64,000 nt of DNA from a virus: positions 1-64,000 of IMG/VR virus record IMGVR_UViG_3300037246_001677; one strand, given 5' to 3'. The translations under genes were made by a program, and so were the position numbers. Shown here piece after piece: positions 36,615-62,169 of this stretch (within the stretch, counting starts at the first letter, position 1; every line of letters starts with the position of its first letter). The notes beneath the pieces are model-generated. The model saw only the letters and a program-made list of their open reading frames with translations. It did not search any database and was not told the DNA's origin.

Positions 36615-36632
36615 CACAAAAGAAGTACTCTA

Positions 36633-37730: not shown

Positions 37731-37738
37731 CTTATAAT

Positions 37739-37823: not shown

Positions 37824-37842
37824 TAGAAAGGAGTTAATTAAA

Positions 37843-37968: not shown

Positions 37969-37987
37969 TGTGAAAGGATAAAGTAAA

Positions 37988-38161: not shown

Positions 38162-38171
38162 GGAAGTTAAA

Positions 38172-38508: not shown

Positions 38509-38637
38509 GAATACTTGTTCTTACCTATACGTGGAGTGTATATCTTCCCGCCGCGTCGCCGTGCTTATTATAACAAATTTTTAACATAATGTAAACAAAA
38601 TTTATTAAATATTTTAAAATAAATTGTAGGAAGAAAA

Positions 38638-39074: not shown

Positions 39075-39091
39075 AAGGAAAAATGTAAAAA

Positions 39092-39712
39092 ATGAAGTAT
39101 GAAACAGCGTGGAAAATACAGGGGATGATTGATGATGTGTATTACAAATTCCATAGTGGAATAACATTCACTAGGTCAAAGGAATTTGATAATAATGATA
39201 TTTACAATACTTTTCTAATATCAGACACCCACTTCAATCACTACCCTAAAACATGGGACTGGCCCGCTAGACCAGAGGGTTGGGAACAAACTATAATAGA
39301 TAACTGGAACAGAGTTATCTTTAAAGATAGTAAAGTAATACATCTCGGTGATTTTGGTTTTGGCACCAAGGAAATGATAAAGAAGTCAAGAGATAAACTA
39401 AACGGTGAAATATATCTACTTAAAGGAAACCATGATAGACATGGTGCTAAGTGGTATGAAGATGTTGGCATAAAATTAATTAAGAAAAATTTTGCAATAC
39501 AAACATCAGGAGAGATTTTCGTATTTTCACACCGACCAATAAAGGATGAAATGCCAGATAAAATGGTTAACATTCATGGTCATTGTCATGAAAAGCGTGG
39601 GTTTATAACTGATAAACATATTCATATATCAGTTGAACAAACAAATTTCAAACCGATACAGTTTCCTGAATTGGTAATGAAGTGGAGAAAATTCGATTAT
39701 AAAACAAAATAA
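39092..39712 (+). CDS. calcineurin-like metallophosphoesterase
   Basis: 206 aa. Metal-site motifs in order: SDTHFNH (DxH), HLGDFG (GD), KGNHDRHG (GNHD), VFSHRP (H) and HGHCHEK (GHxH). Hydrolyses phosphomono- or diesters; phage relatives are often annotated as putative phosphatases. Single-base ATG overlap with the next gene. Confidence 0.9.
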   Translation: MKYETAWKIQGMIDDVYYKFHSGITFTRSKEFDNNDIYNTFLISDTHFNHYPKTWDWPARPEGWEQTIIDNWNRVIFKDSKVIHLGDFGFGTKEMIKKSRDKLNGEIYLLKGNHDRHGAKWYEDVGIKLIKKNFAIQTSGEIFVFSHRPIKDEMPDKMVNIHGHCHEKRGFITDKHIHISVEQTNFKPIQFPELVMKWRKFDYKTK

Positions 39713-40575
39713 TGGATTGGAAGAAGTTTACATTTACATCAGTTTTAGGTATAATAATAATATTAGCGTCATTTTTTATGATAACGGAGTCCGCCAGGTA
39801 CTACAATTTTTTTTATGATTCAGGAGCCTGGCAGCCATTGTTTTTGGCAAGTCTTTTAGAGGTATTCGTTTTGACTCTCGCTGCGATAAAAATAGGAACC
39901 AAAAGGACTTTTCACTTCATTCAAAAGATAATTATGATTAGTGTTTTTGCCATAATAATCACAGCAGCTGGTATTCAAGCAATTAACCCAACGTTGGAAA
40001 GCATTGAAATAGTTTCAAAACAAGAAGCACTTTCTGACATTTTAAAAGAAGAATATAAAACCCTACAGCAAGATCGCGTTGTTTTTGAAAAACAGAAACA
40101 GCGACGTAACACTGCGATCGCGGCGGCTGAAAGAAGAAAAATAGTAAAGGATTTGAAGGAGCTGTTTAACCAGGATATCAAGACAGACAAAGGTCGAGTA
40201 GCCCTATTAAATATTTTACTCTTATTTATGATTAGGTTTATAGTTCAGTTATCAAATGTTTTTTGTGCGTCAATGTTAGGTGTTTATTTTAGAGATAGAA
40301 AAACTGAAATAAAGGAGAAACGCACTATGAAATGGAACATTTTAAAGTTTTTTAAAAAGAAACAAAAAGTAGAAGAGCAAAAAGTAGAACAGCAAAAAGA
40401 ACAATTGACACCACGTCAATTTGTTTTATCTAAATTTCCAAATGCGGTTTGTATGAAATCTGATGCGTTTGGAGAAGGAAAATATATCATATCAAAAGGT
40501 TCTGAAAAAATATCTATTGGTAGATCAAAAACAAAGGCTTGGAGACAAGCCAGTCATAATTTGAAAGGAAAATAA
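39712..40575 (+). CDS. multi-pass membrane protein with coiled coil
   Basis: 287 aa. Three N-terminal transmembrane helices (about 8-24, 42-60, 70-92), a charged coiled coil (100-150), a fourth helix (160-190) and a soluble C-terminal domain (235-287) after a KVEEQKVEQQKEQ linker. No family recognised. Might be envelope-acting (immunity or lysis control). Confidence 0.6.
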   Translation: MDWKKFTFTSVLGIIIILASFFMITESARYYNFFYDSGAWQPLFLASLLEVFVLTLAAIKIGTKRTFHFIQKIIMISVFAIIITAAGIQAINPTLESIEIVSKQEALSDILKEEYKTLQQDRVVFEKQKQRRNTAIAAAERRKIVKDLKELFNQDIKTDKGRVALLNILLLFMIRFIVQLSNVFCASMLGVYFRDRKTEIKEKRTMKWNILKFFKKKQKVEEQKVEQQKEQLTPRQFVLSKFPNAVCMKSDAFGEGKYIISKGSEKISIGRSKTKAWRQASHNLKGK

Positions 40576-40576
40576 A

Positions 40577-40795
40577 ATGGTACACGGCGAAGTATGTCCA
40601 ATATGTAATTCAAAAAATACAGGTGATGGTGAAATGAGTTATACTTATGATGATCCAGCAAAGGTAGCAGCAACCTGGAGTTGTCAGGATTGTGGGGCTA
40701 TTTATAGTGTGATCTATAAAGCAGAAAAAATGGAAATTGAAAAATTTATAGAAGAGGAAGATGAATGGGAACCAGAATATGAGGTAACTTTATGA
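40577..40795 (+). CDS. zinc-ribbon protein
   Basis: 72 aa: CPICNS and CQDCGA pairs; acidic tail. Overlaps the next gene by ATGA. Confidence 0.6.
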   Translation: MVHGEVCPICNSKNTGDGEMSYTYDDPAKVAATWSCQDCGAIYSVIYKAEKMEIEKFIEEEDEWEPEYEVTL

Positions 40796-41193
40796 GCAAA
40801 GTCATTGGAATAATAGGCTCACGGAGACGTGATGCTGACGAGGATTACCACCAAGTTTACAATGAGTTTAAAAAGTGGTATGATAAGGGTGATAAAATTT
40901 GTTCCGGTGGATGTCCAAAAGGTGGAGATCGTTTTGCTGAGATAATTGCCAGAAAAATGGGTTTGACTAAGGAAAATGGTGGTTTGATAATTCATTATCC
41001 TAAGAAACCCCGTCCCGGTTCACCAAGGTGGGCATGGGCAAAAGTAAACTTTGAAAGAAATACTTTGGTAGCAAACGACTCAGATATTATAATAGCTTGT
41101 GTTGCTCCTGATAGGACAGGTGGAACGGAAGATACGATAAAAAAATTCCTAAAGAAAACCACAGGATCGGAAGTTAAAACAAGGATAGTGTAA
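40792..41193 (+). CDS. SLOG-family (YspA-like) nucleotide-binding protein
   Basis: 133 aa. N-terminal VIGIIGSR and central CSGGCPKGGDRFAE match the SLOG/DprA-like Rossmann fold of the DUF2493/YspA type. SLOG domains bind nucleotides or derivatives such as ADP-ribose-related ligands; role in the phage unknown. Coupled to both neighbours. Confidence 0.75.
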   Translation: MSKVIGIIGSRRRDADEDYHQVYNEFKKWYDKGDKICSGGCPKGGDRFAEIIARKMGLTKENGGLIIHYPKKPRPGSPRWAWAKVNFERNTLVANDSDIIIACVAPDRTGGTEDTIKKFLKKTTGSEVKTRIV

Positions 41194-41390
41194 TGTTTGA
41201 AGATTTAATAAAAGACAAACCAGAAAAAGAGAAACCAGAAAAAATTGATAAAGATCATTTTATAAAAATTTTATCGGATAACGTAAGACAGAAACAAAAA
41301 ATTATAGATGATCTTATATCTGAGCTAACAAAAAAACAAGTTACTATTGATGGTATGAGAAAAGAAATAGATTATTTAACAGACCTATAA
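41193..41390 (+). CDS. coiled-coil protein
   Basis: 65 aa, entirely Lys/Glu helix; TAATG overlap with the SLOG gene. Stop abuts the following tRNA-like gene. Confidence 0.5.
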   Translation: MFEDLIKDKPEKEKPEKIDKDHFIKILSDNVRQKQKIIDDLISELTKKQVTIDGMRKEIDYLTDL

Positions 41391-41502
41391 GCGGCGATGG
41401 TGTAACCCGATAAATAGTTTTTATGAGGAATCTATTTTGATGGGGAGGTAGCACACTCGCTGTCCAAGCGGGAGGTGGGGTTCGATCCCCCGAGTCGCTC
41501 CA
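41391..41502 (+). ncRNA. tRNA-Gly-like element with D-loop insertion
   Basis: 112 nt ending CTCCA like the other Gly tRNAs. GCGGC/GTCGC acceptor core, T arm GTGGGG-TTCGATC-CCCC and anticodon arm CTCGC/GCGGG with loop TGTCCAA. About 45 nt (a GATAAATAG/CTATTTTGAT hairpin) are inserted in the D loop and position 33 is G. Likely non-functional or specially processed. Confidence 0.55.
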
Positions 41503-41524
41503 AAAGAAAAGAAAGGAAAACAAA

Positions 41525-41698
41525 ATGTTAGTCATAGTTAAAGAACGAGGTGATATTAGGGAAAAAATGGGTATATTACAAATCGACGATGAGCATAAAG
41601 AAATAACTATTATTCAACATCCGAATTTTGAAGAAGGTGACACCCATCATATTTCAATGTTAAATCATTTAGTTAAATCTATGAGAAAGGATAAATAA
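41525..41698 (+). CDS. small hypothetical protein
   Basis: 57 aa (MLVIVKERGD start), beta-hairpin then helix with His pair; GAAAGGAAAACAAA site. Confidence 0.55.
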   Translation: MLVIVKERGDIREKMGILQIDDEHKEITIIQHPNFEEGDTHHISMLNHLVKSMRKDK

Positions 41699-41940
41699 TG
41701 ACTAAAGGAATAATCGCCATAAGAGAAGTAAAGTCAAATCAGACTATGCTATCACTTGAAGATTATAATGTTAGAGCAAATGCTGAAAAATTTGCAGCAG
41801 ACTATCTTCAAGACAAATGGGATCAAGAAGGCCAAGCCACTAGATGGATGTGGTATGCTGGTTACTTCGTTTTGGGATGTTTCTTTTGGGAAACACTACC
41901 GTTGATGATAGGATTAATAACATTTTTTATAAACTTATAA
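41698..41940 (+). CDS. small membrane protein
   Basis: 80 aa; soluble N-terminal half then two hydrophobic helices (WYAGYFVLGCFFW, LPLMIGLITFFI). TAATG coupling upstream; stop abuts tRNA-Ser(GCU). Confidence 0.55.
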   Translation: MTKGIIAIREVKSNQTMLSLEDYNVRANAEKFAADYLQDKWDQEGQATRWMWYAGYFVLGCFFWETLPLMIGLITFFINL

Positions 41941-42029
41941 GGCGAGGTAGACAGATGGGAGAGTCAAGCGGTTTGCTAAACCGTTCAGCGGTAACACGTT
42001 TGCAGGTTCGAGTCCTGTTCTCGCCGCCA
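41941..42029 (+). tRNA. tRNA-Ser(GCU)
   Basis: 89 nt class II; loop TTGCTAA on GCGGT/ACCGT; acceptor GGCGAGG/TCTCGCC; CCA encoded. Confidence 0.93.
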
Positions 42030-42046
42030 CTTTATAAAGGAACATG

Positions 42047-42226
42047 ATGGAAGATAATGAAAAAGTAATTAAAGCAGCAGTCAATATTATTGTTGAATCA
42101 ATATTAAATCTTATTCAAGATGATCCACATCTATGGAGTAAAAGACCATGTTCAACATGCAGAGCTGTTTCTTCTATAATTGGCAAACCATTTGGTTGTG
42201 TTCTTAAAGCCGTTAAAAAGGAATAA
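42047..42226 (+). CDS. hypothetical protein
   Basis: 59 aa from MEDNEKVI (AAAGGAACATG site); CSTC pair. Unknown. Confidence 0.5.
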   Translation: MEDNEKVIKAAVNIIVESILNLIQDDPHLWSKRPCSTCRAVSSIIGKPFGCVLKAVKKE

Positions 42227-42227
42227 A

Positions 42228-42452
42228 ATGAGAGAATTAATATTATTACCAATACTTCTTTTAATTGTTAGTTGTTGTACACCAGACAAACCAGTTGCAG
42301 CCATTAAACCATTTCATTACAATAGAAATATAATTTGGAAAGCCTATGACTGTGACTGTAATAAAGATATAGATTATTGGCAACACTATGATGAAAATGG
42401 TAAATTTGGAAGTAAAATATATACGAAAGGAAACGAAGGAAAATGCGAATAA
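42228..42452 (+). CDS. small lipoprotein
   Basis: 74 aa from MRELILLP (AAAAAGGAATAAA site). Signal peptide LLPILLLIVSCC with lipobox LIVSC; Cys-containing mature part. Exported to the host envelope if Gram-negative; could mediate exclusion or lysis timing. Confidence 0.6.
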   Translation: MRELILLPILLLIVSCCTPDKPVAAIKPFHYNRNIIWKAYDCDCNKDIDYWQHYDENGKFGSKIYTKGNEGKCE

Positions 42453-42464
42453 TAAAATGTAGAG

Positions 42465-42580
42465 AAAAGGGCGGCCCGTAGATTAAAGCACCGCCATAGA
42501 GCATTGCTAGAGCGCCTCCATGTGGCTTTCAGACAACATATAACCGATTAATGTTGATTTAAAACCACAAAATGGGAGGT
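42465..42580 (+). ncRNA. structured RNA G
   Basis: Gene-free 130 nt: GGCGG/CCGCC hairpin, then CCATxTGG...CCACAAAATGG enclosing CAACAT/ATGTTG. Immediately upstream of the 104-aa gene; its last stem overlaps the GGGAGG ribosome site, which suggests translational control. Confidence 0.4.
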
Positions 42581-42585
42581 CAAAA

Positions 42586-42900
42586 ATGACTTATAAAGAA
42601 TTAAAATTAAAGATAAAACAAGAGCAGAAAGCATTGGCAAGAGCAATCAGAAAAGGTAAAAGCGCAAGAAAACCAAGTAATCGTAACGAGGAAAACATTG
42701 GTTTTTATGAAGCACTTTTCTGGAATAGAATTAACTATAGATACAATCACATTGTGTATTGTAATATGTTTAACAGAACACCGTATGAAAAAATTGAGCA
42801 ACCCAGAGAATGGAATACAGCCAATAAACATCGGCTCGATACAATTAGAAAAGAATGGGAGTCCTTGCTTGATGAGCAAATTATTTGTGACAATTCGTAA
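42586..42900 (+). CDS. hypothetical protein
   Basis: 104 aa, basic helical N-terminus, Arg-rich. GGGAGGTCAAAA site. Overlaps the Pth2-like gene by 29 bp. Confidence 0.55.
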   Translation: MTYKELKLKIKQEQKALARAIRKGKSARKPSNRNEENIGFYEALFWNRINYRYNHIVYCNMFNRTPYEKIEQPREWNTANKHRLDTIRKEWESLLDEQIICDNS

Positions 42901-43165
42901 GGACCTAAGTCATTCACAACGGGCAGTTCAAGCAGGCCATGCTGTGGCAGAGTATATGCTTAACTGCCCGAATAGCAGTTGGAGGAATCAAACCCTTATC
43001 TATCTGGGAGTTAAAGGTTTGACCCAACTGGAAAATTTAAAAATGAAATTGAGACTACGTGGTACTAAGTTCGTGGAATTTAAGGAACCGGATATTGGCA
43101 ATCAAACCACAGCAATAGCTAGTGATATAGATGATCCAATATTCAATAAATTAAATCTGTTATAA
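42872..43165 (+). CDS. Pth2-like peptidyl-tRNA hydrolase
   Basis: 97 aa from MSKLFVTIRK. Signature RKDLSHSQRAVQAGHAVAEYML matches the Pth2/PTRHD1 family (R-x-DL...K/R-x-x-Q-x-x-HA), which releases peptides from peptidyl-tRNA; about 20 residues shorter than archaeal Pth2. The K of the family GK motif is replaced. Its stop is 1 bp before the suppressor tRNA. Fits the tRNA-rich setting. Confidence 0.7.
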   Translation: MSKLFVTIRKDLSHSQRAVQAGHAVAEYMLNCPNSSWRNQTLIYLGVKGLTQLENLKMKLRLRGTKFVEFKEPDIGNQTTAIASDIDDPIFNKLNLL

Positions 43166-43239
43166 TGGTCAGTAGTTCAGTGGCAGAACGGGTGATTCTA
43201 AACCACCGGTCGTGGGTTCAATTCCCACCTGGCCATCCA
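43166..43239 (+). tRNA. suppressor tRNA (CUA, reads UAG)
   Basis: 74 nt. Acceptor TGGTCAG/CTGGCCA (U1-A72 as in tRNA-Gln), D arm GTTC/GAAC, anticodon stem GGTG/CACC with an A-C closing mismatch, loop TTCTAAA with U33 and anticodon CTA, T arm GTGGG-TTCAATT-CCCAC, T73, CCA. Reads amber codons. Amino acid uncertain (Gln-like acceptor end, but no G73). Confidence 0.85.
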
Positions 43240-43256
43240 AAAAGGAGAAAGTAAAA

Positions 43257-43448
43257 ATGAGAATGAGTCAAAGAATGATGGATTCATTGGATAGATGGAT
43301 AACCGGAAATTATGGTGAGGATCAATTTAAGGATGAAGAGGAAGAAGATGAATTTTGTGATGAAGACTGCAGTAAATGTAAAATGAAAGTTAACTACACT
43401 ATGTTCGATCAAGAGGATGATGGGGACATAGGGCCAAAACCGTTCTAA
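43257..43448 (+). CDS. small acidic Cys protein
   Basis: 63 aa from MRMSQRMM (AAAAAGGAGAAAG site); poly-Asp/Glu segment followed by CDEDCSKCK. Confidence 0.5.
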   Translation: MRMSQRMMDSLDRWITGNYGEDQFKDEEEEDEFCDEDCSKCKMKVNYTMFDQEDDGDIGPKPF

Positions 43449-43462
43449 AAAGGAGGTAAAAT

Positions 43463-43579
43463 ATGTTACAAAGTGATTTTGGAACCCTAGCTAATTTATT
43501 AATTATGGTGGGAGCATTAGCATTTTTAATATACATGACTATTGGTTATGGTGGTGCTTTGAATGTCCCATTTCTATAA
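43463..43579 (+). CDS. mini membrane protein
   Basis: 38 aa (MLQSDFGTLA), one transmembrane helix; AAAGGAGGTAAA site. Confidence 0.5.
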   Translation: MLQSDFGTLANLLIMVGALAFLIYMTIGYGGALNVPFL

Positions 43580-43596
43580 GGAGATAAAAGACTAAA

Positions 43597-44061
43597 ATGT
43601 TTGAACCAAAAATATATGTGGCTAGTGATCGAGAAGGTTGTGTAATGAAACAAGAAATTGTACAACATCTCACTACAACAAACAAACAATATTCAATAGA
43701 AGATATTGGACCGAAACTTGGGGAAGATATTGATTTCCCAACCCACGCTTTAATGATTGCTGATTTAGTTAAGGAAAATCCAGGTGAGCATTTTGGAGTA
43801 CTCATAAGTACAACTGGAAATGAAATGGCCGTTGCCGCAAATAAGATAAAAGACATTAGAGCGGTTGTTTGCTGGAACATACAGACTGCTGAACAAGGTA
43901 GAAAAATACTCGATGCTAACATAATATGTATACCAGCCGATATAACAACTCAAGACAGCCCACTTAAAATTATAGATGCGTTTATAAAAAGAGGCGCGTC
44001 TAAAAACATGAAACATTTTAGGAGAAGATGGTTATTAGAAAAATTAGTTGATGCCTTGTAG
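43597..44061 (+). CDS. rpiB: ribose-5-phosphate isomerase B-like protein
   Basis: 154 aa. Matches RpiB/LacAB: VASDREGCVMKQEI (DxxG phosphate site), DIDFPTHA, the GVLISTTGNEMAVAANK catalytic block (usual C-G-T-G is S-T-T-G here) and IRAVVCWN. Interconverts ribulose-5-P and ribose-5-P, the precursor of PRPP used by PncB. Catalytic Cys replaced by Ser, so activity is uncertain. Stop TAG lies inside tRNA-Gln. Confidence 0.85.
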   Translation: MFEPKIYVASDREGCVMKQEIVQHLTTTNKQYSIEDIGPKLGEDIDFPTHALMIADLVKENPGEHFGVLISTTGNEMAVAANKIKDIRAVVCWNIQTAEQGRKILDANIICIPADITTQDSPLKIIDAFIKRGASKNMKHFRRRWLLEKLVDAL

Positions 44062-44126
44062 TGTAACGGTAGCACACAACACTCTGAATGTTGCGGGTAT
44101 AGGTTCGAATCCTATCAGGGCAGCCA
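44052..44126 (+). tRNA. tRNA-Gln(CUG)
   Basis: Loop CTCTGAA on CAACA/TGTTG; acceptor TGCCTTG/CAGGGCA (U1-A72), G73; CCA encoded. Overlaps the RpiB gene by 10 bp. Last tRNA of the array. Confidence 0.93.
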
Positions 44127-50770: not shown

Positions 50771-52351
50771 ATGGCAAGATTTAATGAAAAAACAACTCAA
50801 AAAACTGAAATGCTAGCTGGTGGACAAGGATTCAAAATGACTCCAGAAATGGAGTTATATGCTTGTACGTGTGCTAGCATTCTCACACCACAGTACTACA
50901 CACCAAACACAAACGACCAAATAAACAAGATCAAAACTTTAATCAGAAAGTGTGATCCTGTTTTTGTTGCGCAACTTGCAGTATATGCAAGGGAGCAAAT
51001 GTACCTTAGAACTATACCTATGGTTCTAACGGTAGAATTGGCTAAGTGCCATAAGGGAGATAATCTGTTACGAAGACTGTCTCGAAGAGTAATCCAACGG
51101 GCAGATGAAATCACAGAGCTATTGGCTTACTATGTTAAGGCAAATGGCCTGCAGTCAAAATTCGTAGAGTCAAAGGGTGGACACAATATAGAGAAGAAAA
51201 TCTATAAGTTGTCTAATCAATTAAGAAAAGGTGTCGCTGATGCCTTCTTTAAATTTGATGAATATCAATTTGCAAAGTACAACCGTGCTGGAGAAATCAA
51301 GCTACGTGATGCTTTGTTCTTGACTCACCCAAAACCAAGAACAGATGCCCAAAAAGTGCTATTTGAAAAGATAGCGCAAAATAATCTGTCTACTCCGTAT
51401 ACTTGGGAAACACAGCTAAGTAAAGCGGGCCAAGAAGGTAAAGATAAGAAGTCAGTTTGGACAGAACTTATTATGTCTGGCAGAATGAACTACATGTCTA
51501 TGTTAAGGAATTTAAGGAATTTTCTCGATGCAGAAGTTTCTGAAATAGTACTTAACAAAGTTGCTGATCGTATTGCCGATCCTAACGAAGTTCGGAAAAG
51601 TAAGCAATTTCCATTTAGGTTCTTATCAGCTTATAGAAGTATTGGTGGAGGACCATCCGATAAGTATAGTTGGGGTGACATCCATGCCACAGAGCAACAC
51701 AACAACCTATTTACACCAATTATTTTAGAAGCACTTGAAAAGGCCGTTCTAATATCCATTGAGAACATCCCAATGCTATCAAACAATACTGTTTTAGTGG
51801 CAACCGATGTTTCCGCATCAATGCAATGCACTATTTCGGAAAAGTCAACCATTCAAAACTATGATATTGGAGCACTACTTGGAATGCTGGTTCAGGCCAG
51901 AGTTCCTAACTCAGTAATTGGAATGTTTGGAGACACCTGGAAAGTCTTAACAGATGCACCAGTTGAAAATGTCCTTGCAGCAACTAACGAAGTCCATCGT
52001 AGAGAAGGAGAAGTTGGCTATGCAACTCATGGATATAAAGTGCTTTCATGGGCACTTGACCAAAAGAAGGTTTTTGATAGAATCTTCTACTTCACTGATG
52101 GTCAAATGTACGGTCGTGGTAGTCGCGATCTACGAGGCATTAACGAAAAGTGGAAATTATATAAAAGCACTATTAACCCACATGCTAAACTCTACTTGTT
52201 CAACCTTGGGTCATATGGACAAACCCCTATTGACCTGAAACAGGACGATGTTCACATGATAACTGGTTGGAATGATAAGATTTTCACCATACTTGAGAGC
52301 ATTGAAAATGGTGGACAAGTACTTGATGAAATTAAGGAGATTACAATATGA
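50771..52351 (+). CDS. rsr: Ro60/Rsr TROVE-domain RNA-binding protein
   Basis: 526 aa, full length. N-terminal TROVE HEAT-like ring (residues about 25-330; e.g. YACTCASIL, VFVAQLAVYAREQMYLRTIP, LLRRLSRRVIQRADEI) and a C-terminal von Willebrand A domain with intact MIDAS D346-x-S348-x-S350 (ATDVSASM). Ro60 binds Y RNAs on its outer surface and misfolded RNA 3' ends in its cavity. Two Y RNAs lie just upstream under one promoter. TTAGGAGGTATTTGTTAAT site. Confidence 0.95.
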   Translation: MARFNEKTTQKTEMLAGGQGFKMTPEMELYACTCASILTPQYYTPNTNDQINKIKTLIRKCDPVFVAQLAVYAREQMYLRTIPMVLTVELAKCHKGDNLLRRLSRRVIQRADEITELLAYYVKANGLQSKFVESKGGHNIEKKIYKLSNQLRKGVADAFFKFDEYQFAKYNRAGEIKLRDALFLTHPKPRTDAQKVLFEKIAQNNLSTPYTWETQLSKAGQEGKDKKSVWTELIMSGRMNYMSMLRNLRNFLDAEVSEIVLNKVADRIADPNEVRKSKQFPFRFLSAYRSIGGGPSDKYSWGDIHATEQHNNLFTPIILEALEKAVLISIENIPMLSNNTVLVATDVSASMQCTISEKSTIQNYDIGALLGMLVQARVPNSVIGMFGDTWKVLTDAPVENVLAATNEVHRREGEVGYATHGYKVLSWALDQKKVFDRIFYFTDGQMYGRGSRDLRGINEKWKLYKSTINPHAKLYLFNLGSYGQTPIDLKQDDVHMITGWNDKIFTILESIENGGQVLDEIKEITI

Positions 52352-52730: not shown

Positions 52731-52775
52731 ATGTCTAAATAATATAAATACCTATAGTAAATTAGCAGGTGGGCT

Positions 52776-54546: not shown

Positions 54547-54897
54547 ATGAGATTAACGAGATTTCTTAAAGAGGAAGATCATACAAGTAAAGGTCTTGAG
54601 GTTCCAGAGCCAGAAGTTGGAGAAAAATATAGCAAGGAAGAAGTTAAAAAATATATTTCTCTTATTAAAAATGCTATTAGCTCTCAGAAAAAAGATGGCG
54701 ATGGAGCAATTCTAAAAGACCTTGAAGATAAATTAGATAAATGGCAAAATGTAGAAGCAGAAACAAAACCAGCGGGACCCGTTGTTCCGGCAGTGGATGT
54801 TCTGGCTGCTCAACCGCCAGAAGATGGTGCTCCACCAGCAGAAGGTGGACCACCTGCTAAAAAAGATAAGAAAAAGAAAAAAGACGAGGAAGAATGA
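54547..54897 (+). CDS. capsid-targeted internal protein, low complexity
   Basis: 116 aa. Begins MRLTRFLKE-E, a T4-type capsid-targeting peptide with predicted prohead-protease cut after KE. The rest is charged helix and a Pro/Ala/Glu linker ending in Lys/Glu runs, like core or internal head proteins. AAGGAGTAAAA site; first gene of the cargo series. Confidence 0.65.
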   Translation: MRLTRFLKEEDHTSKGLEVPEPEVGEKYSKEEVKKYISLIKNAISSQKKDGDGAILKDLEDKLDKWQNVEAETKPAGPVVPAVDVLAAQPPEDGAPPAEGGPPAKKDKKKKKDEEE

Positions 54898-54918: not shown

Positions 54919-55638
54919 ATGAGATTAGAAAAATTTATGATAATTGAGGGTATCAATGATAAAGGTATTTTCAAGGCTGTTTTTATGGCTGGACATCCAG
55001 GCGCTGGCAAAAGCTATGTTTTAACTAAAGTAAAATCTGGTTCAATAGACCCACGTTGGGTTAACACAGATAAAGTATTTCCAATATTCAAAAAATGGTG
55101 GAACTCAGATTGGCCAAAAATAAGTCATAATGTAAGAGTAGTTAATAGAAATCAGTTGTCTGGATATATTAACTCAATGCTTCCACTTGCAATTGATGGA
55201 ACAGCTAATATAGTTTCTACTGTTATGAGAAGGAAAAATATTCTTGAATCAATCGGATATGATACAGCAATGATATTTGTAAATACTTCTCTTGAAACTG
55301 CTTTAAAAAGAGCAGAAGAAAGAGAAAAAAAGACTGGCAGAAAAGTAGACCAAGAATTTATAAAGAGTGTATATACGGACATACAAAAACATAAAAATTA
55401 TTATAGAAGTAAATTCGATACTTGGATAGAAGTTGATAATGATGTTGGAGATTTAACAGAAAAAGTAATTATTAATTCCTTTAAATTTATGGGTAACTTC
55501 TATAACTCAGCAATTCAAAATCCAATCGGTAAAGAAAAAGTTGAAAAGATGAAAAAGAATGGTTGGAAATACTTAGACCCAAATGTAACTAGTATGAAAA
55601 TAATAAAAAACACTATCAGTGGATGGTATACAAAATGA
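54919..55638 (+). CDS. capsid-targeted P-loop kinase
   Basis: 239 aa. N-terminus MRLEKFMIIE-G fits the targeting peptide. Walker A GHPGAGKS (residues 25-32), VNTDKVF and lid-like RAEEREKKTGRKV suggest a zeta-toxin/polynucleotide-kinase-type phosphotransferase. Injected kinases in other phages modify host components; substrate unknown. ATGA overlap with the next gene. Confidence 0.75.
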   Translation: MRLEKFMIIEGINDKGIFKAVFMAGHPGAGKSYVLTKVKSGSIDPRWVNTDKVFPIFKKWWNSDWPKISHNVRVVNRNQLSGYINSMLPLAIDGTANIVSTVMRRKNILESIGYDTAMIFVNTSLETALKRAEEREKKTGRKVDQEFIKSVYTDIQKHKNYYRSKFDTWIEVDNDVGDLTEKVIINSFKFMGNFYNSAIQNPIGKEKVEKMKKNGWKYLDPNVTSMKIIKNTISGWYTK

Positions 55639-56330
55639 GATTAAAAGGATACTTAAAAGAAGTAACACAGCCAACTGTAAAAATGACAATTGATGCTCTA
55701 AAAATAGCATTTGGTAAAATCCAACAAATAATGGGCCAGGTAGACCTTTTTGATATAGATGATAAAACAGCAATAAATTTACTTAGAAAAGGATTCGATG
55801 AGATTTCTATAAAATTAGAAATGGGAAAACAAAAAGGAGGCGTTAGGAAGTACTTGGCAGGCGGAGAATTTGGTGGAAATTATGGAGAAGATTATGCTTG
55901 GAAAATTATACTGTTACCTGACTTTTCAAAAGTTTTTAGAAAATTTGCCAAAGAAAGGAGCATGAAAAATTTCATGAGCCACACCAAAAATCCTCTTTTT
56001 AGAGAGTTTGTAGAATTGGTCTCACATGAAATAATGCATTCACAGCAGGCTTTAAATTCTGCTGGTAAAGCTTTTGATCCAGAAGTACAAGGAATAACAA
56101 CAACTTATACTGGTAATATGAAAGAATATTTAAAAAATCCATTGGAAATAGAACCATACGCACAACAAGCAGCAATAGATGCAATAAGAAAAGGACATTC
56201 AGTTTATATAGCAACAATGAGAGACCTCTTTCCACCTAAAAGTAAAGTATGGAAGAAATTTGCAAAGAAGTATAAATTCTATATGGAGATACTCAAAAAA
56301 GAAGGGGATATTAAACCCTATAAAAAATGA
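55635..56330 (+). CDS. capsid-targeted HExxH protein
   Basis: 231 aa from MRLKGYLKE-V; this start lies in an ATGA overlap and is preferred to an ATG 12 nt earlier because it exposes the targeting peptide. Contains SHEIMHSQQ, a zincin-type HExxH, in a small all-helical context followed by IEPYAQQAAID. Putative metalloprotease delivered with DNA; third zinc ligand may be the E in PLEIEPYA. Confidence 0.65.
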   Translation: MRLKGYLKEVTQPTVKMTIDALKIAFGKIQQIMGQVDLFDIDDKTAINLLRKGFDEISIKLEMGKQKGGVRKYLAGGEFGGNYGEDYAWKIILLPDFSKVFRKFAKERSMKNFMSHTKNPLFREFVELVSHEIMHSQQALNSAGKAFDPEVQGITTTYTGNMKEYLKNPLEIEPYAQQAAIDAIRKGHSVYIATMRDLFPPKSKVWKKFAKKYKFYMEILKKEGDIKPYKK

Positions 56331-57049
56331 AACTCCAAAATTATTTAATAGAAGATAATAAAAGTTTAGCTTACTATACTAAGAAAATTCAAGCCGAGTG
56401 CAAACCATTTCTGAAAGAAATTAAAGGCGCACGTGGAACTTTAACTAGACATCAAAAAGCACCAAATCCAGGTGGCGGTGGATCAATAAAAGTCAAAAAA
56501 GTAAATACTACTCCAGTATTCAAAAAGACAACCAGAAAAGATAGACAACCACTTGACTCACCATTTGACTTCCATATATTAATAGATGATTGGTTTGCAA
56601 ATAGTAAATTTGGATGGAGAGCAAGAAGTAGTGCGTTATTCTGTTGGGGCACGCCATTTCCATTACTCGCGTCAGACTGGATGGTATTTCCTGCTGGTAA
56701 ATTTCAGTATGTTTGGTCACCAAAAGTTACTGATTTATATGGTAAAGTAGAAATATTCTTTGAAAAGGGAAAAGGAGAAAAACGAAAAGCCGAACAAGAA
56801 TCAGATGGGCCAAAAAGTTTCGGTGATCCATATATGGACCGTGCAACTGATGAAGCATGGGAAGTATTTGAAAAGCAATTAGCTCCAACCTATACAAATA
56901 AAAATTTAAAAAAGGCTGTCGTGTCCTCAAAAGAAATAATGGTTAATTGTAGTTACTCATACCTTGTGAGACAAGAATTAATAGAAAATGTAAATGATTT
57001 ACTTGATTTAAGACTACAAGGTGCTAAATTCGTTGGAAGAAAATTATGA
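56327..57049 (+). CDS. capsid-targeted protein, possible ADP-ribosyltransferase fold (paralogue 1)
   Basis: 240 aa. Starts MKLQNYLIE-D. Shares with the 61090 gene the series RxPxDxP, DDWFxxxFGWRARSSALF, FPAGKFQYVWSP and DLYG. This order (basic residue, FGW-R-S, PxGKF) faintly recalls R-S-E ADP-ribosyltransferases such as T4 Alt/Mod, but the catalytic Glu is not clear. Overlaps both neighbours by ATGA. Confidence 0.5.
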   Translation: MKLQNYLIEDNKSLAYYTKKIQAECKPFLKEIKGARGTLTRHQKAPNPGGGGSIKVKKVNTTPVFKKTTRKDRQPLDSPFDFHILIDDWFANSKFGWRARSSALFCWGTPFPLLASDWMVFPAGKFQYVWSPKVTDLYGKVEIFFEKGKGEKRKAEQESDGPKSFGDPYMDRATDEAWEVFEKQLAPTYTNKNLKKAVVSSKEIMVNCSYSYLVRQELIENVNDLLDLRLQGAKFVGRKL

Positions 57050-57564
57050 GACTAAAACAATACTTAATAGAAGTAGAAGATAAAAAAATTTTCCTTGATA
57101 TGGATGGAGTTATAGTAGATTTTATGGCTTCTGTTGGAAAATTATTTAAGTTAACTGACTTCACAAGTTGGGAAGCAATGGGGAAAGAGAAATATCGCGA
57201 AATAAATAAAATGGGTGAAAGATGGTGGAGTCAAATGAAGTGGACAAACGATGGTAAAAAGCTTTGGAATCATCTAAAATCTTATGATGTAACAATTTTG
57301 TCCGCAACTCCAGTTGATCCAGTATCAAGAGCAATATCAATCAAAGGAAAAAGAAATTGGTTAACTAAAAATATTGGCTCATCCTATGCAAGCAACGCAC
57401 TTATAGTAATTGGAATTGATAAACAAAAATACGCTGATAAAAACCATATACTTATAGATGATTCAGAAAGAAATATTAGACAATGGAGAAGTAAAGGCGG
57501 AATTGGTATTCTACATAAAAATACTAGCGATACAATTAAACAATTGGAACAATTAAATATATGA
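57046..57564 (+). CDS. capsid-targeted HAD 5'-nucleotidase
   Basis: 172 aa. Starts MRLKQYLIE-V, then KKIFLDMDGVIVDF (HAD motif I with D-x-D), LSATP motif II, and HILIDDSERNIRQWRSKGG (motif IV). Resembles deoxyribonucleotidase NT5C-type phage HADs. ATGA overlaps with both neighbours. Confidence 0.82.
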   Translation: MRLKQYLIEVEDKKIFLDMDGVIVDFMASVGKLFKLTDFTSWEAMGKEKYREINKMGERWWSQMKWTNDGKKLWNHLKSYDVTILSATPVDPVSRAISIKGKRNWLTKNIGSSYASNALIVIGIDKQKYADKNHILIDDSERNIRQWRSKGGIGILHKNTSDTIKQLEQLNI

Positions 57565-58988
57565 AGTTTTTAGACTACATATCAGAAGCAAGAGAAATGT
57601 TAAAAGATTGGCAATCATATGTGAGTAAAAATCCAGAGCTTGCCGCTGGAGTTAAAGTACTCCAAAAAATAAACAAAGCTGGATATAAGGCTTACATTGT
57701 TGGTGGACCAGTACGTGATATTACCCTTGGTATTCAACCCAAAGATATTGATATAGCAACAAATATGCCAATGAAAGAACTTGATAAAATGTTTAGAACT
57801 TATGATATTGGTAAGTCAAAAGATTTTGGTATATTAGTTGTAAAGGAGGGAGGTAATGATTTTGAAGTCGCCCAGTTTAGAACTGATGGAAAATACATTG
57901 ATGGACGAAGACCGGAGTCAGTCAAAATCCAAGGAAGCTTTGAAGATGATGCTGGTCGCAGAGATTTTACAATTAATGCAATGGGAGTTAATGCGAAAGG
58001 AGAGATCATTGACTACTTCGATGGCAAACGAGATATTAAGAACAAAGTGCTCCGCACCGTGGGAGACCCCTTAAAAAGGTTTGGTGAGGACTACTTACGA
58101 ATGATGCGCCTTGCAAGATTTTCTTCAAGACTTGGATTTGAAATTGATCCAGAAACAAAGAAAGCTGCTAAGAAACTTTCACCTAATATACTAAGTCTTG
58201 CACCAGAAAGAGTTAAAGATGAGTTAATGAAGTCAGCCGCCCAGAGTGGTGAGAAGTTTGCTCAATATATTCAGATACTTGGAGACTTAAAAATACTTAG
58301 AATTATCTTACCAGAAGTAATGAATTTAAAATGGTTTAGAGAAAACTTACAACATCACCCAGAAACAAGAGGTGAGGGTGGTACAGTATACAGTCATGTA
58401 ATGGCTGCATTGAAACAAAGTAAAACAGCGGACCCAATTAAAAACCTAGCTATTTTACTACATGATATTGGTAAAGGAGTCACGTTTGCACCGAAGCCAG
58501 GTGCTGGAACACCAACATATTATAGACATGCAAGAAAAAGCGTTCGGTTAGTCAATGCAATTGCTGATAGACTTAAAATGAGTAATAAAGAACGTGATGC
58601 TCTTATATTTGGCGTTGGTAACCACATGAAATTTCATCAAATACTGGATATGAAACCATCTAAAATAGCCAGGCTTGTGTCAGATGAAAACTGGGAAGTA
58701 CTTGTGGCTGTCGGTAAAGCGGATGAGTTTTCTCGTGGTAAAACTTTTATGCACTCTGGTGATTTTGAAAAAATAGTTGATAAGGCAATTAAGATAAAAG
58801 AGAAATATGGAACAAAAGAAGTAGTAAAAAGAATAAAGCTTGTTAATGGAAACCATGTTATGAAAATAACTGGTTTACCACAAGGAAAGAAAGTTGGTGA
58901 TATAATTAGGAAAACAACCGAGTGGATCATGGACAACGATGTAAAAGATAAAGAAGTAATTGATAATTATATAATGAGTTTAGCATGA
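57561..58988 (+). CDS. cca: capsid-targeted CCA-adding enzyme / poly(A) polymerase family with HD domain
   Basis: 475 aa. Starts MKFLDYISE-A. Class II nucleotidyltransferase head: YIVGGPVRD (G48, G49, R52, D53), DIDIAT (D62/D64), RRDFTINAM and the RFGEDYLRMMRLARF region; HD domain LLHDIGKG with HARKSVRL and GNHMKFH. Adds or repairs tRNA CCA ends. The targeting peptide implies it travels in the virion and acts on host tRNAs at once. Confidence 0.9.
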   Translation: MKFLDYISEAREMLKDWQSYVSKNPELAAGVKVLQKINKAGYKAYIVGGPVRDITLGIQPKDIDIATNMPMKELDKMFRTYDIGKSKDFGILVVKEGGNDFEVAQFRTDGKYIDGRRPESVKIQGSFEDDAGRRDFTINAMGVNAKGEIIDYFDGKRDIKNKVLRTVGDPLKRFGEDYLRMMRLARFSSRLGFEIDPETKKAAKKLSPNILSLAPERVKDELMKSAAQSGEKFAQYIQILGDLKILRIILPEVMNLKWFRENLQHHPETRGEGGTVYSHVMAALKQSKTADPIKNLAILLHDIGKGVTFAPKPGAGTPTYYRHARKSVRLVNAIADRLKMSNKERDALIFGVGNHMKFHQILDMKPSKIARLVSDENWEVLVAVGKADEFSRGKTFMHSGDFEKIVDKAIKIKEKYGTKEVVKRIKLVNGNHVMKITGLPQGKKVGDIIRKTTEWIMDNDVKDKEVIDNYIMSLA

Positions 58989-59206
58989 GATTAAGAGAAT
59001 TTATAGAGAAGAAAACACAAGAGGAGCTAAGAGGTGATCTTATTAGAGCTATTGACTTGTCTAAGGACACTGAAGATATGATGCAAGCAGTAGCACTTAT
59101 TACTTCTGCTTCACAAGAATTAGAGAATGATACTCTTATTTTTGTTCAACATTATTTTGATAAAAAATGGGGAAATATGAGATCACAAGTGAGAAGCGTG
59201 GGATGA
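58985..59206 (+). CDS. capsid-targeted small helical protein
   Basis: 73 aa. Starts MRLREFIE-K; helical, acidic. ATGA overlap with the CCA enzyme and with the next gene. Cargo or core component. Confidence 0.6.
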   Translation: MRLREFIEKKTQEELRGDLIRAIDLSKDTEDMMQAVALITSASQELENDTLIFVQHYFDKKWGNMRSQVRSVG

Positions 59207-59397
59207 AATTCAAAGAATACATAGAAGAAGGAAAGGAAGCAAAATTCATAAAGGCTATTAAAGGTGCTGTGTCCATGGCTCAAGCCAGAAGATATAAAGA
59301 GTTATTTCATCTAATGGATATGAGTGAGAAAGAAAGAGAAAAAATAAAAAAAGCACTAGATATTAAGTTATCATCATTAGAGAAGAAAAGGAAATGA
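59203..59397 (+). CDS. capsid-targeted small helical protein
   Basis: 64 aa from MKFKEYIEE-G (start in ATGA overlap, preferred to the ATG at 59167). Lys/Glu-rich helices. Possibly an internal packaged protein similar to T4 IP proteins. Confidence 0.6.
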   Translation: MKFKEYIEEGKEAKFIKAIKGAVSMAQARRYKELFHLMDMSEKEREKIKKALDIKLSSLEKKRK

Positions 59398-60818
59398 ATA
59401 AATTCAATGACTTCATATTTGATGGATTAGGACCAGCGGATCAGTTCAAAAAAATAAAAGTAATAAATGAAAAATCAGATAAAACATTTGACTTCAACGT
59501 TTTAATACTTACTAGCAAAGCTGATGAAAATCCAGATGGTCTTTACCAAACTGCAGAACGACTTGCTGATGAATGTACTAAAAAGGGAATATCAAATTAT
59601 ATAATGTTTTCAGAATCAGCAAGGTTAGAGTTGGACGATGATGGAAATTATACTGCATATAACTTAGAAGACCCCACTGGTTTTCCAGTTCTACCAGACA
59701 AAACTGTCGCCATAAACAGAGGTTCTGTTATGGAAAAGTTTAACTCACGTAATATAATTTCACAATTAGAAAGGGGAAACATCTTTTGTATAAACTGTAG
59801 AGAGTGTATAGAAGTGTGTAATGATAAGTATAGAACAATATTAAGACTCGCGGACGCTGGTATTGCCTCACCAAAAACAGTGCTCATACAGGGAGAAGAA
59901 GGAATAGATGATGCAGTAGAACAAATTGGTGGTAAATTCCCATATATATTAAAAACATTATTTGGGTCCAAAGGAATTGGGGTTATGTTTGTTGAATCAT
60001 TAAAATCATTAAAATCAATGCTTCAGCTTATATGGAAAGTAAGTGAAGATGAAGAACTTATACTTCAAGAATACATACCAACAGATTATGATGTAAGAGT
60101 TCACGTTTTAGGTGATGAAGTTATTGCCGCTATGAGAAGATATATAATAAAAGATGACTTCAGAAGTAACTACTCACAAGGTGGTAAAGTAACCAAACAT
60201 AAATTATCAGATATTGAAAAAGAAGCTTGTATTAAATCCTCAAAAGCCGTTGGTGCTTCATGGAGTGGTGTGGATTACATTCTTAACAGTAAAAAAGAGC
60301 CATTAGTAATAGAAGTAAATGCTTCACCGGGAACCGAAGGCATAGAAGAGGCAACTAAAGAAAATGTAGTTGGTAAAATATTAGATTGGGCCGGTGATAA
60401 AAGTAACTGGGATAAAGTATCCAAAGAAATTGGATATAAAGAAATGGTTAAAGTTAATGGATTTGACCTTGTAGCTAAATTTGATACAGGAAATGGACTT
60501 CTTTCTGTAATGCACGCTGATAAATATGAAATTAATAAGAAGAAGAAATTGGTTACTTGGACATCACATGGTAAAAAGTTTGAGAATGAATTAAAAGACA
60601 TAGAGGAAGTAGAAGTTGGTGGAGCTAAAAATTATACTGAAAAAAGACCAGAAATAGAACTAGATATGTTCTTTGATGGTGTGTTATATAAAGAAGTGGG
60701 GTTTACCTTAGATGATAGATCAGACAGGACACCAATATTAATAGATCGTAGTTTTATGAAAAGAGCAAATGTTTCGGTCAATCCAGCCAAACAGTTTGTA
60801 ATAACTGTAGAGGAGTAA
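59394..60818 (+). CDS. ATP-grasp ligase fused to RimB-like (retropepsin-fold) protease domain
   Basis: 474 aa. N-terminus MNKFNDFIFD resembles the targeting peptides but ends in D. Residues 130-320 form a RimK-type ATP-grasp domain (PYILKTLFGSKGIGVMFVES, LILQEYIPTDYDVRVHVLG, WSGVDYI, VIEVNASPGTEGIE). Residues 345-474 resemble ATP-dependent zinc protease/RimB (VAKFDTGNGLLSVMHADK with DTG; RTPILIDRSFMKR). RimK adds Glu to protein C-termini and RimB trims them; a fusion could modify a host or virion protein. Confidence 0.85.
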   Translation: MNKFNDFIFDGLGPADQFKKIKVINEKSDKTFDFNVLILTSKADENPDGLYQTAERLADECTKKGISNYIMFSESARLELDDDGNYTAYNLEDPTGFPVLPDKTVAINRGSVMEKFNSRNIISQLERGNIFCINCRECIEVCNDKYRTILRLADAGIASPKTVLIQGEEGIDDAVEQIGGKFPYILKTLFGSKGIGVMFVESLKSLKSMLQLIWKVSEDEELILQEYIPTDYDVRVHVLGDEVIAAMRRYIIKDDFRSNYSQGGKVTKHKLSDIEKEACIKSSKAVGASWSGVDYILNSKKEPLVIEVNASPGTEGIEEATKENVVGKILDWAGDKSNWDKVSKEIGYKEMVKVNGFDLVAKFDTGNGLLSVMHADKYEINKKKKLVTWTSHGKKFENELKDIEEVEVGGAKNYTEKRPEIELDMFFDGVLYKEVGFTLDDRSDRTPILIDRSFMKRANVSVNPAKQFVITVEE

Positions 60819-60820: not shown

Positions 60821-61093
60821 ATGAAACTTGATAAGTACTTAAAAGAAGAAAGACTGCATAGTAAAGATAAAAGAGCTATAATGGGATTTATGAAAAATCC
60901 ACCTAAATCTAAAACCGCCCATAAGATGCAGAGTGGTGAATTATTTAAGGTGGAGCCTACCAGTAATGGAGTCAAATTTATTTACGACAAGGATGACTTT
61001 GAACTTGTCACTACTCTTGTAGACATAGCAGACTCCCTTGGTGGGTATAAATTTCAATCAAAACCAGGTGTATTTATAGTGATGGTAAAATGA
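60821..61093 (+). CDS. capsid-targeted small protein
   Basis: 90 aa. Starts MKLDKYLKE-E. Alpha/beta body (FELVTTLVDIADSLGGYKF). GAGGAGTAATA site. No domain recognised. Confidence 0.6.
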   Translation: MKLDKYLKEERLHSKDKRAIMGFMKNPPKSKTAHKMQSGELFKVEPTSNGVKFIYDKDDFELVTTLVDIADSLGGYKFQSKPGVFIVMVK

Positions 61094-62169
61094 AATTTAC
61101 TGAGTATATAGATGAGTCCTCAAAGCGTGAATTGAAATTATATGGTATGATTCAATCTTTATACAAAAATTGCGCTCCATTTATAAAAGAGTTAAGAAAG
61201 TCAGGTGAAAATAAAGTACTGTGGAGAGGAACCAATAAAATCAGCACAACAACAATAAAACAAGTAACTCCAAGACAAGACCGTGCTCCAAAAGATATGC
61301 CAGTAGAAATACACGACGAACTTGATGTAAGATTCAAAAAGAAATTTGGATGGATGGCGAGAAGTGAAGGTGTGTTTATTACATCACAAAGAGCATCAGC
61401 GGAAACTTATGGTGATGGTTATATATTTTTTCCAGTAGGAAAATATGAGTACTTATATAATCCATTTATTAGTGATTTATATTCAGAAGTGGATTCTGAT
61501 TTAGATATATATAATGCATTTGTTGAAGGAGAAAATGCTGAATGGGAAATGGAATGGGAAAATGAGTATGGAGAAAATGAGTATGGAACATGGTATTATT
61601 TAGGAACAGACACAGGAGAGTCTGACACAGAAGAAGCAACAATAGCAGCAGCAGAGGCAGAAGGAATTGAATATGATGAACATGATCTTGAAAACATAGA
61701 AAATGATTTAGAGTGGACTCCTGAAGTGTCATTACAAGATTATTTGGATGAAAAAAAAGAAGGAGCAAAAGAAGAAGGAGTATATAATTTAGAACAAGTT
61801 TTGAAAGGTTATAGGTCCACTAATTTAGGATTGGCTATAAAAAGGAAAGTGGAAATTATGTTCAAATGTAAAAGTTATTATTTAATCGAAGGTCATTTCA
61901 AAAAGGATATTATAAAATATGTGTTGGAAGGTAAACCAATGAAGTTTAATCCTAAGCAAAAAGAACTTCCATTTGTCAGGGATCCAAATTGGAGAAAAAA
62001 ACCAGGGGTAAAACCAGCATTCATTGATCCATACAGCTTAGAAGACTGGAAAGTATCCGGACTTGGTATGAAAGCAGCCCATCAAAAGTTTGGTAAGTTA
62101 ATGTCAAAAGCTAAAAAGGGACACCAGAAACCAGTAATTAAAAATAAACTTAAGAAATTAATTAAGTAA
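61090..62169 (+). CDS. capsid-targeted protein, possible ADP-ribosyltransferase fold (paralogue 2)
   Basis: 359 aa. Starts MKFTEYIDE-S. LWRGTNK, RAPKDMPVEIHDELD, FGWMARSEGVFITS, FPVGKYEYLYNP and DLY repeat the pattern of the 56327 gene; R (LWRGT), STS-like ITS and later Glu-rich stretch are compatible with an R-S-E transferase. An acidic insert (residues 140-220) and a basic Lys/Pro tail follow. Convergent with the helicase gene, 8-bp overlap of ends. Confidence 0.55.
   Translation: MKFTEYIDESSKRELKLYGMIQSLYKNCAPFIKELRKSGENKVLWRGTNKISTTTIKQVTPRQDRAPKDMPVEIHDELDVRFKKKFGWMARSEGVFITSQRASAETYGDGYIFFPVGKYEYLYNPFISDLYSEVDSDLDIYNAFVEGENAEWEMEWENEYGENEYGTWYYLGTDTGESDTEEATIAAAEAEGIEYDEHDLENIENDLEWTPEVSLQDYLDEKKEGAKEEGVYNLEQVLKGYRSTNLGLAIKRKVEIMFKCKSYYLIEGHFKKDIIKYVLEGKPMKFNPKQKELPFVRDPNWRKKPGVKPAFIDPYSLEDWKVSGLGMKAAHQKFGKLMSKAKKGHQKPVIKNKLKKLIK

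What the first reader, a model, noticed from the sequence alone, without database searches (positions are those of the whole stretch)
57561..58988. CCA-adding enzyme predicted to be packaged and injected
A full class II CCA-adding enzyme plus HD domain carries the MKFLDYISE tag. Anticodon- or acceptor-cleaving defences, or toxins that remove tRNA 3' ends, would be countered immediately on infection. Phage tRNAs already encode CCA, so the target is probably damaged tRNA.
Basis: inference. Interest (0 to 1): 0.7.

Follow-up and report, generated by a model that had tools for sequence, protein, structure and literature searches.

The report
Phage-packaged tRNA 3'-end repair enzyme
A bacterial virus encodes a complete enzyme that rebuilds the CCA end of transfer RNAs, and it carries a T4-like N-terminal 'load me into the virus head' tag whose form changes in step with its neighbours' tags across related viruses, so the virus very probably injects the enzyme with its DNA and can mend the host's tRNAs before it makes any protein of its own.

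Summary
Observation confirmed: ORF 57561-58988 (475 aa) is an intact class II CCA-adding enzyme beginning MKFLDYISEA. The tag matches T4's capsid-targeting sequence (IPIII/IPII: MKTYQEFIAEA). Where the gene has been split in two, the C-terminal half carries its own tag in two lineages. All 35 phage tRNAs encode CCA, so the enzyme is not needed to mature them. Most likely it is packaged, trimmed after Glu9, ejected, and restores tRNA 3' ends from the start of infection; the specific counter-defence role remains inference. It cannot mend anticodon cuts: the phage's RtcB and RNA ligase are untagged. New variant of a known kind: T4-type internal head protein carrying an RNA-repair enzyme.

The parts
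57561..58988 (+). Class II CCA-adding enzyme, 475 aa, with N-terminal capsid-targeting tag
57561..57587 (+). Capsid-targeting tag MKFLDYISE; predicted gp21-type cleavage after Glu9 (I-S-E|A)
   Evidence: PMC9026906
57690..58055 (+). Nucleotidyltransferase head domain (residues 44-165): GGxVRD, DxD, flexible loop, RRD motif; EDxxR follows at residues 176-180
58395..58985 (+). C-terminal HD-like region (H279, H301-D302, H323 invariant); a separate protein in natural split variants
52743..52750 (+). T4-late-promoter-like box TATAAATA, 33 bp before ORF 52776, upstream of the co-directional run holding the cassette
54547..54897 (+). Tagged neighbour MRLTRFLKE, unknown function
54919..55638 (+). Tagged neighbour MRLEKFMIIE: P-loop kinase (AAA_33/zeta-like; weak polynucleotide kinase match)
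55635..56330 (+). Tagged neighbour MRLKGYLKE with an HEIMH (zincin-like) motif; no family match
56327..57049 (+). Tagged neighbour MKLQNYLIE, paralogue of 61090-62169, unknown fold
57046..57564 (+). Tagged neighbour MRLKQYLIE: HAD-type phosphatase (NT5C family)
58985..59206 (+). Small neighbour MRLREFIEKK, tag-like start
59203..59397 (+). Tagged small neighbour MKFKEYIEE
59394..60818 (+). RimK-like ATP-grasp plus Zn-protease-like protein; start MNKFNDFIFDG (Asp where the tag has Glu)
60821..61093 (+). Tagged neighbour MKLDKYLKE
61090..62169 (+). Tagged neighbour MKFTEYIDE, paralogue of 56327-57049
27079..44126 (+). tRNA array (34 of the 35 tRNAs of the window), all with encoded CCA
5253..6428 (-). 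RtcB tRNA-splicing ligase, untagged
10356..10967 (-). RNA-ligase-like protein (phrog_548, E 1.2e-6), untagged
50771..52351 (+). TROVE/Ro60-like RNA-binding protein, untagged

Best explanation
It is an active class II CCA-adding enzyme turned into an internal head protein. Made late, it is drawn into the prohead core by its N-terminal tag (shown: the tag matches T4's CTS and is under selection; inferred: packaging). The phage's gp21-like protease then cuts after Glu9 (site shown, cleavage inferred), freeing the enzyme inside the capsid, and it enters the cell with the DNA (inferred from T4 internal proteins). From the start of infection it re-adds C, CC or CCA to tRNAs with shortened or altered 3' ends (catalytic residues shown, activity inferred). 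The first substrates would be host tRNAs, and later the phage's own array, which already encodes CCA. The most likely benefit is keeping translation going while host stress or defence nucleases and nucleotidyltransferases act on tRNA acceptor ends. Step confidences: catalytically competent 0.85; packaged 0.85; injected 0.75; benefit mainly against tRNA-directed defence 0.4.
For: T4 IPIII/IPII start MKTYQEFIAEA. In IPIII, targeting rests mainly on residues 4 and 7 and processing on 8 and 10, and gp21 cuts after L/I-x-E (PMC9026906); these map onto the conserved positions 3, 6, 7 and 9 here. Portal, gp21-like protease (E 1e-54), scaffold (1.6e-5) and capsid are in the same record. pN/pS is 0.195 at tag anchors, 1.12 at free tag columns and 0.19 in the NTase domain. 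24 of 34 orthologues keep the strict tag and 32 of 34 an L/I-x-E site near the start. Dialect covariation: own-neighbour tag score 27.9 against 21.9 +/- 1.2 permuted, none of 20,000 reaching it. Split genes: C-halves start MRLMNFINEQ (L141) and MKYREYLSEI (L022). In G005 the gene lies just downstream of protease, scaffold and capsid genes. Tagged proteins are basic: median pI 9.57 vs 6.18, p 0.0012. Late-type box ahead of the operon and of the portal gene. Cellular CCA enzymes and ten of the eleven other phage CCA enzymes inspected show no tag-like start. 35 of 35 tRNAs encode CCA. Overexpressed CCA enzyme PcnA suppresses MenT3 (PMC11541572).
Against: No proteomics, cleavage or activity data exist for this uncultured phage. 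Two divergent orthologues (L139, L144) have tags without a canonical L/I-x-E site, and the C-half in L144 has no tag. The dialect test is not corrected for kinship among loci. Two divergent orthologues are acidic. A gp21-like protease was not found in several related records, which may be fragments. Nothing ties the enzyme to a particular defence system, and most hosts already have a CCA enzyme.
Confidence: 0.6

Rival explanations
1. The enzyme is packaged and injected, but serves general take-over or tRNA housekeeping rather than defence: it tops up CCA ends worn by normal turnover, or supplies CCA activity in a host whose own enzyme is limiting, so that early phage translation is fast.
For: Same packaging evidence; all phage tRNAs encode CCA, so the substrate must be turned-over tRNA; the phage carries a large tRNA set.
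Against: Hosts normally have their own CCA enzyme; ongoing turnover could be served by an ordinary expressed gene, as in phages with untagged CCA enzymes.
Confidence: 0.22
2. It is packaged, but the useful activity lies in the HD-like domain: a phosphohydrolase acting on 2',3'-cyclic phosphates or nucleotide alarm signals, with the nucleotidyltransferase secondary.
For: In two split lineages the HD half has its own tag and could act alone; HD metal-site residues are invariant.
Against: The NTase catalytic motifs are equally invariant and the N-half keeps its tag too; pN/pS is lower in the NTase part, 0.19 vs 0.24.
Confidence: 0.08
3. The protein is packaged mainly as a basic core or DNA-binding filler of the head and enzymatic function is incidental.
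For: pI 9.2-9.6 against 5.5-7.7 for untagged CCA enzymes; T4 internal proteins are basic (PMC9026906).
Against: All catalytic motifs are invariant at 64-83% identity, with strong purifying selection in the catalytic domain; divergent members are acidic yet still tagged.
Confidence: 0.05
4. The N-terminal peptide is not a packaging signal (chance, a translation-initiation feature, or another sorting signal); the gene is an ordinary expressed phage CCA enzyme for tRNA maturation or repair.
For: Untagged phage CCA enzymes are common and usually read that way (PMC3622015, PMC7824862); no virion data.
Against: Tag statistics, amino-acid-level selection on anchors only, T4 CTS match, dialect covariation, separate tags on split halves; maturation is unnecessary since every tRNA encodes CCA.
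Confidence: 0.05

Closest known systems
T4 internal head proteins IPI, IPII, IPIII and Alt (capsid-targeting sequence, gp21-processed)
   Same: Short N-terminal tag with two aromatic or hydrophobic anchors three residues apart, an L/I-x-E site, a gp21-like protease and T4-type head genes in the same genome; mostly basic proteins; accessory genes that vary between phages.
   Different: Cargo is a complete RNA-repair enzyme rather than a restriction inhibitor (IPI) or ADP-ribosyltransferase (Alt); tag one residue shorter; a run of tagged genes; tag dialects differ between lineages.
Class II (bacterial-type) CCA-adding enzymes, e.g. 6ibp/6qxn and 1miv
   Same: Motifs A-D, flexible loop and overall fold; best PDB matches by sequence and by model.
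   Different: N-terminal capsid tag plus linker, strongly basic, and in some lineages split into two tagged polypeptides.
CCA-adding enzymes of jumbo and Vequintavirinae-type phages (RaK2 gp031, phiTE, CB7)
   Same: Phage-encoded CCA enzyme, proposed for tRNA maturation or repair (PMC3622015, PMC7824862, PMC7344957).
   Different: Those examined here start at the catalytic head without a tag (RaK2 itself was not examined); no packaging has been proposed for them in the papers found.
Genes-in-pieces phage enzymes, e.g. Aeh1 nrdA split by mobE
   Same: A homing endonuclease separates one enzyme into two ORFs whose products probably reassemble (PMC2988022).
   Different: Here the downstream half also has a capsid-targeting tag in two lineages.

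Membership tests
Class II CCA-adding enzyme | Motif A (GGxVRD ... DxD), motif B (RRD), motif D template EDxxR | tested here: met
   Key residues invariant in 16 orthologues; aligned to 6ibp and 1miv; motif definitions from PMC11784652
Class II CCA-adding enzyme | Flexible loop needed for A addition (absent from CC-adding enzymes) | tested here: met
   Residues 106-118 FRTDGKYIDGRRP align without gap to 6ibp FRTESSYSDNRRP
Class II CCA-adding enzyme | Not a poly(A) polymerase: lacks the PAP insertion after the FR motif | tested here: met
   Gap opposite the E. coli PAP insertion (3aqm); PcnB models score lower
Class II CCA-adding enzyme | Over the cut-off of an NCBIfam CCA equivalog | tested here: not met
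   NF009814 242.9 bits vs cut-off 290: divergent from the named cellular subfamilies; Pfam cut-offs are met. This model does not define class II.
Class II CCA-adding enzyme | CCA-adding activity | not testable with these tools
   Needs purified enzyme
T4-type internal head protein (CTS cargo) | N-terminal CTS with targeting and processing residues in T4 spacing | tested here: met
   MKFLDYISEA vs MKTYQEFIAEA; T4 residue roles from PMC9026906; conserved columns 3, 6, 7, 9
T4-type internal head protein (CTS cargo) | gp21-type protease, gp22-type core and gp23-type capsid in the same genome | tested here: met
   phrog_207, phrog_237 (weak, 1.6e-5), phrog_138 and phrog_213
T4-type internal head protein (CTS cargo) | Late expression | tested here: inconclusive
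   TATAAATA box 33 bp before the first ORF of the run; 7 of 25 boxes lie 25-45 bp before starts vs about 5% for permuted 8-mers; no transcript data
T4-type internal head protein (CTS cargo) | Protein present in the virion, cleaved after the CTS, ejected into the host | not testable with these tools
   Uncultured phage, no proteomics
Anti-defence protein | Restores phage growth on hosts carrying a tRNA-directed defence | not testable with these tools
   Only precedent: CCA enzyme PcnA suppresses MenT3 toxicity (PMC11541572)

The most novel reading that the evidence does not exclude
Tailed phages of a wide T4-like lineage carry a ready-made tRNA 3'-end repair enzyme in every virion, delivered before any phage gene is expressed, as pre-emptive counter-defence; selection for delivery is strong enough that where the gene has been cut in two, the second half carries its own capsid-targeting signal and the enzyme is delivered as a two-piece kit.
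Probability: 0.4. Interest if true: 0.85.

Novelty: new variant of a known kind. Interest (0 to 1): 0.68.

Why it matters
If right, tRNA repair is not only something phages express after infection but something they bring along, which would change how tRNA-directed immunity (toxins and abortive systems acting on acceptor ends) is thought to be overcome. The covarying tag gives a genome-only way to list the injected proteins of T4-like phages, including uncultured ones: the same cassette holds a kinase, a phosphatase, a zincin-like protein and unknown families. The split genes are a natural experiment suggesting that both halves need an address label.

Tried and rejected
Group II intron as cause of the split genes (the YVR tails suggested a GUGYG start): Rfam found none, the DNA reads TATGTAAGAAG, and L141 has only a short junction with an ATGA overlap, so rejected. 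ADP-ribosyltransferase for the paralogues 56327/61090: Foldseek gave no match below E 0.39 on a modest model, so left open. Pfam HD domain: no hit, so the HD assignment rests on residues and fold. Poly(A) polymerase: rejected on missing insertion and scores. Phage tRNA maturation as purpose: rejected because all 35 tRNAs encode CCA. A possible propeptide on the 735-kb phage CCA enzyme was not pursued.

Full report
WHAT IS THERE. The ORF at 57561-58988 (+) encodes 475 aa beginning MKFLDYISEA. It matches the Pfam poly(A)-polymerase head and RNA-binding domains, the PHROG tRNA nucleotidyltransferase family from residue 41 to 459, and NCBIfam CCA models, though below their equivalog cut-offs. Sequence and model both match CCA-adding enzymes best (6ibp E 2.7e-46; Foldseek 6qxn E 2e-13; model pLDDT 71.5). 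Motifs A, B and D and the flexible loop, as defined in PMC11784652, are intact, and the key residues are invariant in 16 orthologues. The insertion that marks E. coli poly(A) polymerase is missing. The C-terminal region keeps H279, H301-D302 and H323 but has no Pfam HD match. The record is a 120,170-base linear virus contig.

THE TAG IS A T4-TYPE CAPSID-TARGETING SEQUENCE. T4 IPIII and IPII, read from NC_000866, start MKTYQEFIAEA. According to PMC9026906, the first ten residues of IPIII suffice for loading, residues 4 and 7 carry targeting, residues 8 and 10 processing, and gp21 cuts after L/I-x-E. In the window protein and its orthologues the conserved positions are 3, 6, 7 and 9: the same spacing, one residue shorter. 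The same contig holds a T4-type portal (phrog_213), gp21-like protease (phrog_207, E 1e-54), scaffold (phrog_237, weak) and capsid (phrog_138). The capsid protein is 33-34% identical to those of cyanophages and other T4-like phages.

STATISTICS. The strict pattern M[KR][FL]xx[YF][IL]xE occurs at seven called gene starts. Among 766 internal methionine windows it occurs three times, and all three are better start codons of genes called a few codons too long; the composition expectation over all starts is 0.003-0.005. Eight of these ten lie in one run, 54547-62169; two more lie at 98-100 kb. Across 16 orthologues pN/pS is 0.195 at tag anchors, 1.12 at free tag positions and 0.19 in the catalytic domain, so selection acts on the tag as a peptide.

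RELATED GENOMES. Two scans of viral contigs gave orthologues down to about 47% identity. Of 34 distinct N-termini, 24 keep the strict tag and 32 an L/I-x-E site near the start. Neighbouring genes are very often tagged too, whether the gene sits in a cassette, among baseplate-type genes, or just downstream of protease, scaffold and capsid genes (G005). The tag has dialects: MFKNYLEDI in L139 beside MKKFKEYLENI and MKKFKNYLEDI; MLKIYLENI in L144 beside MIFRDYLEI and MSLALYLEI; KRIDMLFES in L135 and L137 beside KVNCLFERQ and KIDKIFEQ. The enzyme's tag resembles its own neighbours' tags more than those of other genomes (27.9 vs 21.9, sd 1.2, none of 20,000 permutations). This test does not correct for kinship, but the neighbours are not homologous to the enzyme, so shared descent of the gene does not explain the match. 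gp21-like proteases were found in five of the related records tested, including three dialect genomes of one type and one of another; other records may be fragments. Cellular CCA enzymes start directly at the catalytic head. So do most of the other phage CCA enzymes inspected: ten of eleven show no tag-like start; the 735-kb phage has an N-terminal extension containing MLNEAI that I did not pursue.

SPLIT GENES. In L140, L141 and L145 the gene is broken near residue 271 into a 276-aa NTase part and a 250-aa HD part that overlap by ATGA; the HD part begins MRLMNFINEQ, a strict tag. In L022 and L023 a GIY-YIG endonuclease separates the parts and the HD part begins MKYREYLSEI. L146 has another nuclease and a weaker LNE-type start. 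L144 is broken elsewhere (near residue 109) and its second part has no tag. The breaks share tails (YVRKII... and KLGxxExYDxNNPEHxDPxKY). Rfam found no intron. Split phage enzymes that remain active are known (PMC2988022). That the downstream half carries its own tag in two lineages is hard to explain unless both halves have to reach the capsid.

SUPPORTING CONTEXT. Tagged proteins are basic (median pI 9.57 vs 6.18 for untagged, p 0.0012), as T4 internal proteins are. Main-clade phage CCA enzymes have pI 9.2-9.6 against 5.5-7.7 in untagged ones, but two divergent members are acidic. A T4-late-like box TATAAATA lies 33 bp before ORF 52776 at the head of the co-directional run, and similar boxes precede the portal gene and tagged genes (7 of 25 at 25-45 bp; permuted 8-mers about 5%). 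Every one of the 35 tRNAs encodes CCA. RtcB, an RNA-ligase-like protein and a TROVE/Ro60 protein are encoded in the same window and are untagged. These serve as internal negative controls: the RNA-repair enzymes are not tagged indiscriminately.

HOW IT MOST LIKELY WORKS. Late synthesis, entry into the prohead core through the tag, removal of nine residues by the gp21-like protease, ejection with the DNA, and restoration of tRNA 3' ends from the first minutes. Shown: tag, site, protease gene, catalytic residues, selection. Inferred: packaging, cleavage, ejection, activity, benefit. The benefit may be counter-defence: a CCA enzyme suppresses the acceptor-end toxin MenT3 (PMC11541572), and jumbo-phage CCA enzymes have been placed among RNA-repair systems (PMC7824862). 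General tRNA upkeep during take-over fits the data too.

NOVELTY. Tagged internal proteins and phage CCA enzymes are both known. I found no report of a packaged CCA-adding enzyme in the held open-access library, which lacks most subscription papers. I file it as a new variant of a known kind.

Noticed in passing
L141:2501-4080, L022:6001-8262, L146:2376-4849, L144:1292-3571: CCA gene split into two ORFs, with homing-type nucleases between in three of four cases; shared tails YVRKII... and KLGxxExYDxNNPEHxDPxKY at two different break points, possibly docking tails; downstream halves tagged in L141 and L022.
   Followed up: partly
window 59394-60818: RimK-like plus Zn-protease-like protein starts MNKFNDFIFDG; the orthologue in L002 starts MSKFNDFIFES. 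PMC9026906 says Asp at the processing position of the T4 CTS allows targeting but blocks processing, so it may be packaged but not trimmed.
   Followed up: no
window 55635-56330: Tagged protein with an HEIMH motif, a possible injected metalloprotease; no Pfam match.
   Followed up: no
window 56327-57049 and 61090-62169: Paralogous tagged family found in several related phages; model has no PDB match; function unknown.
   Followed up: partly
window 54919-55638 and 57046-57564: Tagged P-loop kinase and tagged HAD phosphatase near the CCA gene: a possible split end-healing pair that would also be injected.
   Followed up: no
window 43166-43239: tRNA with anticodon CTA (called tRNA-Pyl by ARAGORN), a possible amber suppressor; TAG ends 19 of 163 called ORFs in the record.
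   Followed up: no
window 5253-6428, 10356-10967, 50771-52351: RNA-repair set: RtcB, RNA-ligase-like protein and TROVE/Ro60 homologue, all untagged.
   Followed up: partly
L136:1883-3883: CCA enzyme with about 200 extra residues between its tag (IKKINLLFE) and the catalytic part.
   Followed up: no
L028:111-965 (record 104111-104965): Papain-like cysteine protease motif (NQGRLGSCVGFA) directly before the portal gene.
   Followed up: no
L169:314 (735-kb phage LR756501.1): CCA enzyme with an N-terminal extension containing MLNEAI, possibly an independent propeptide.
   Followed up: no
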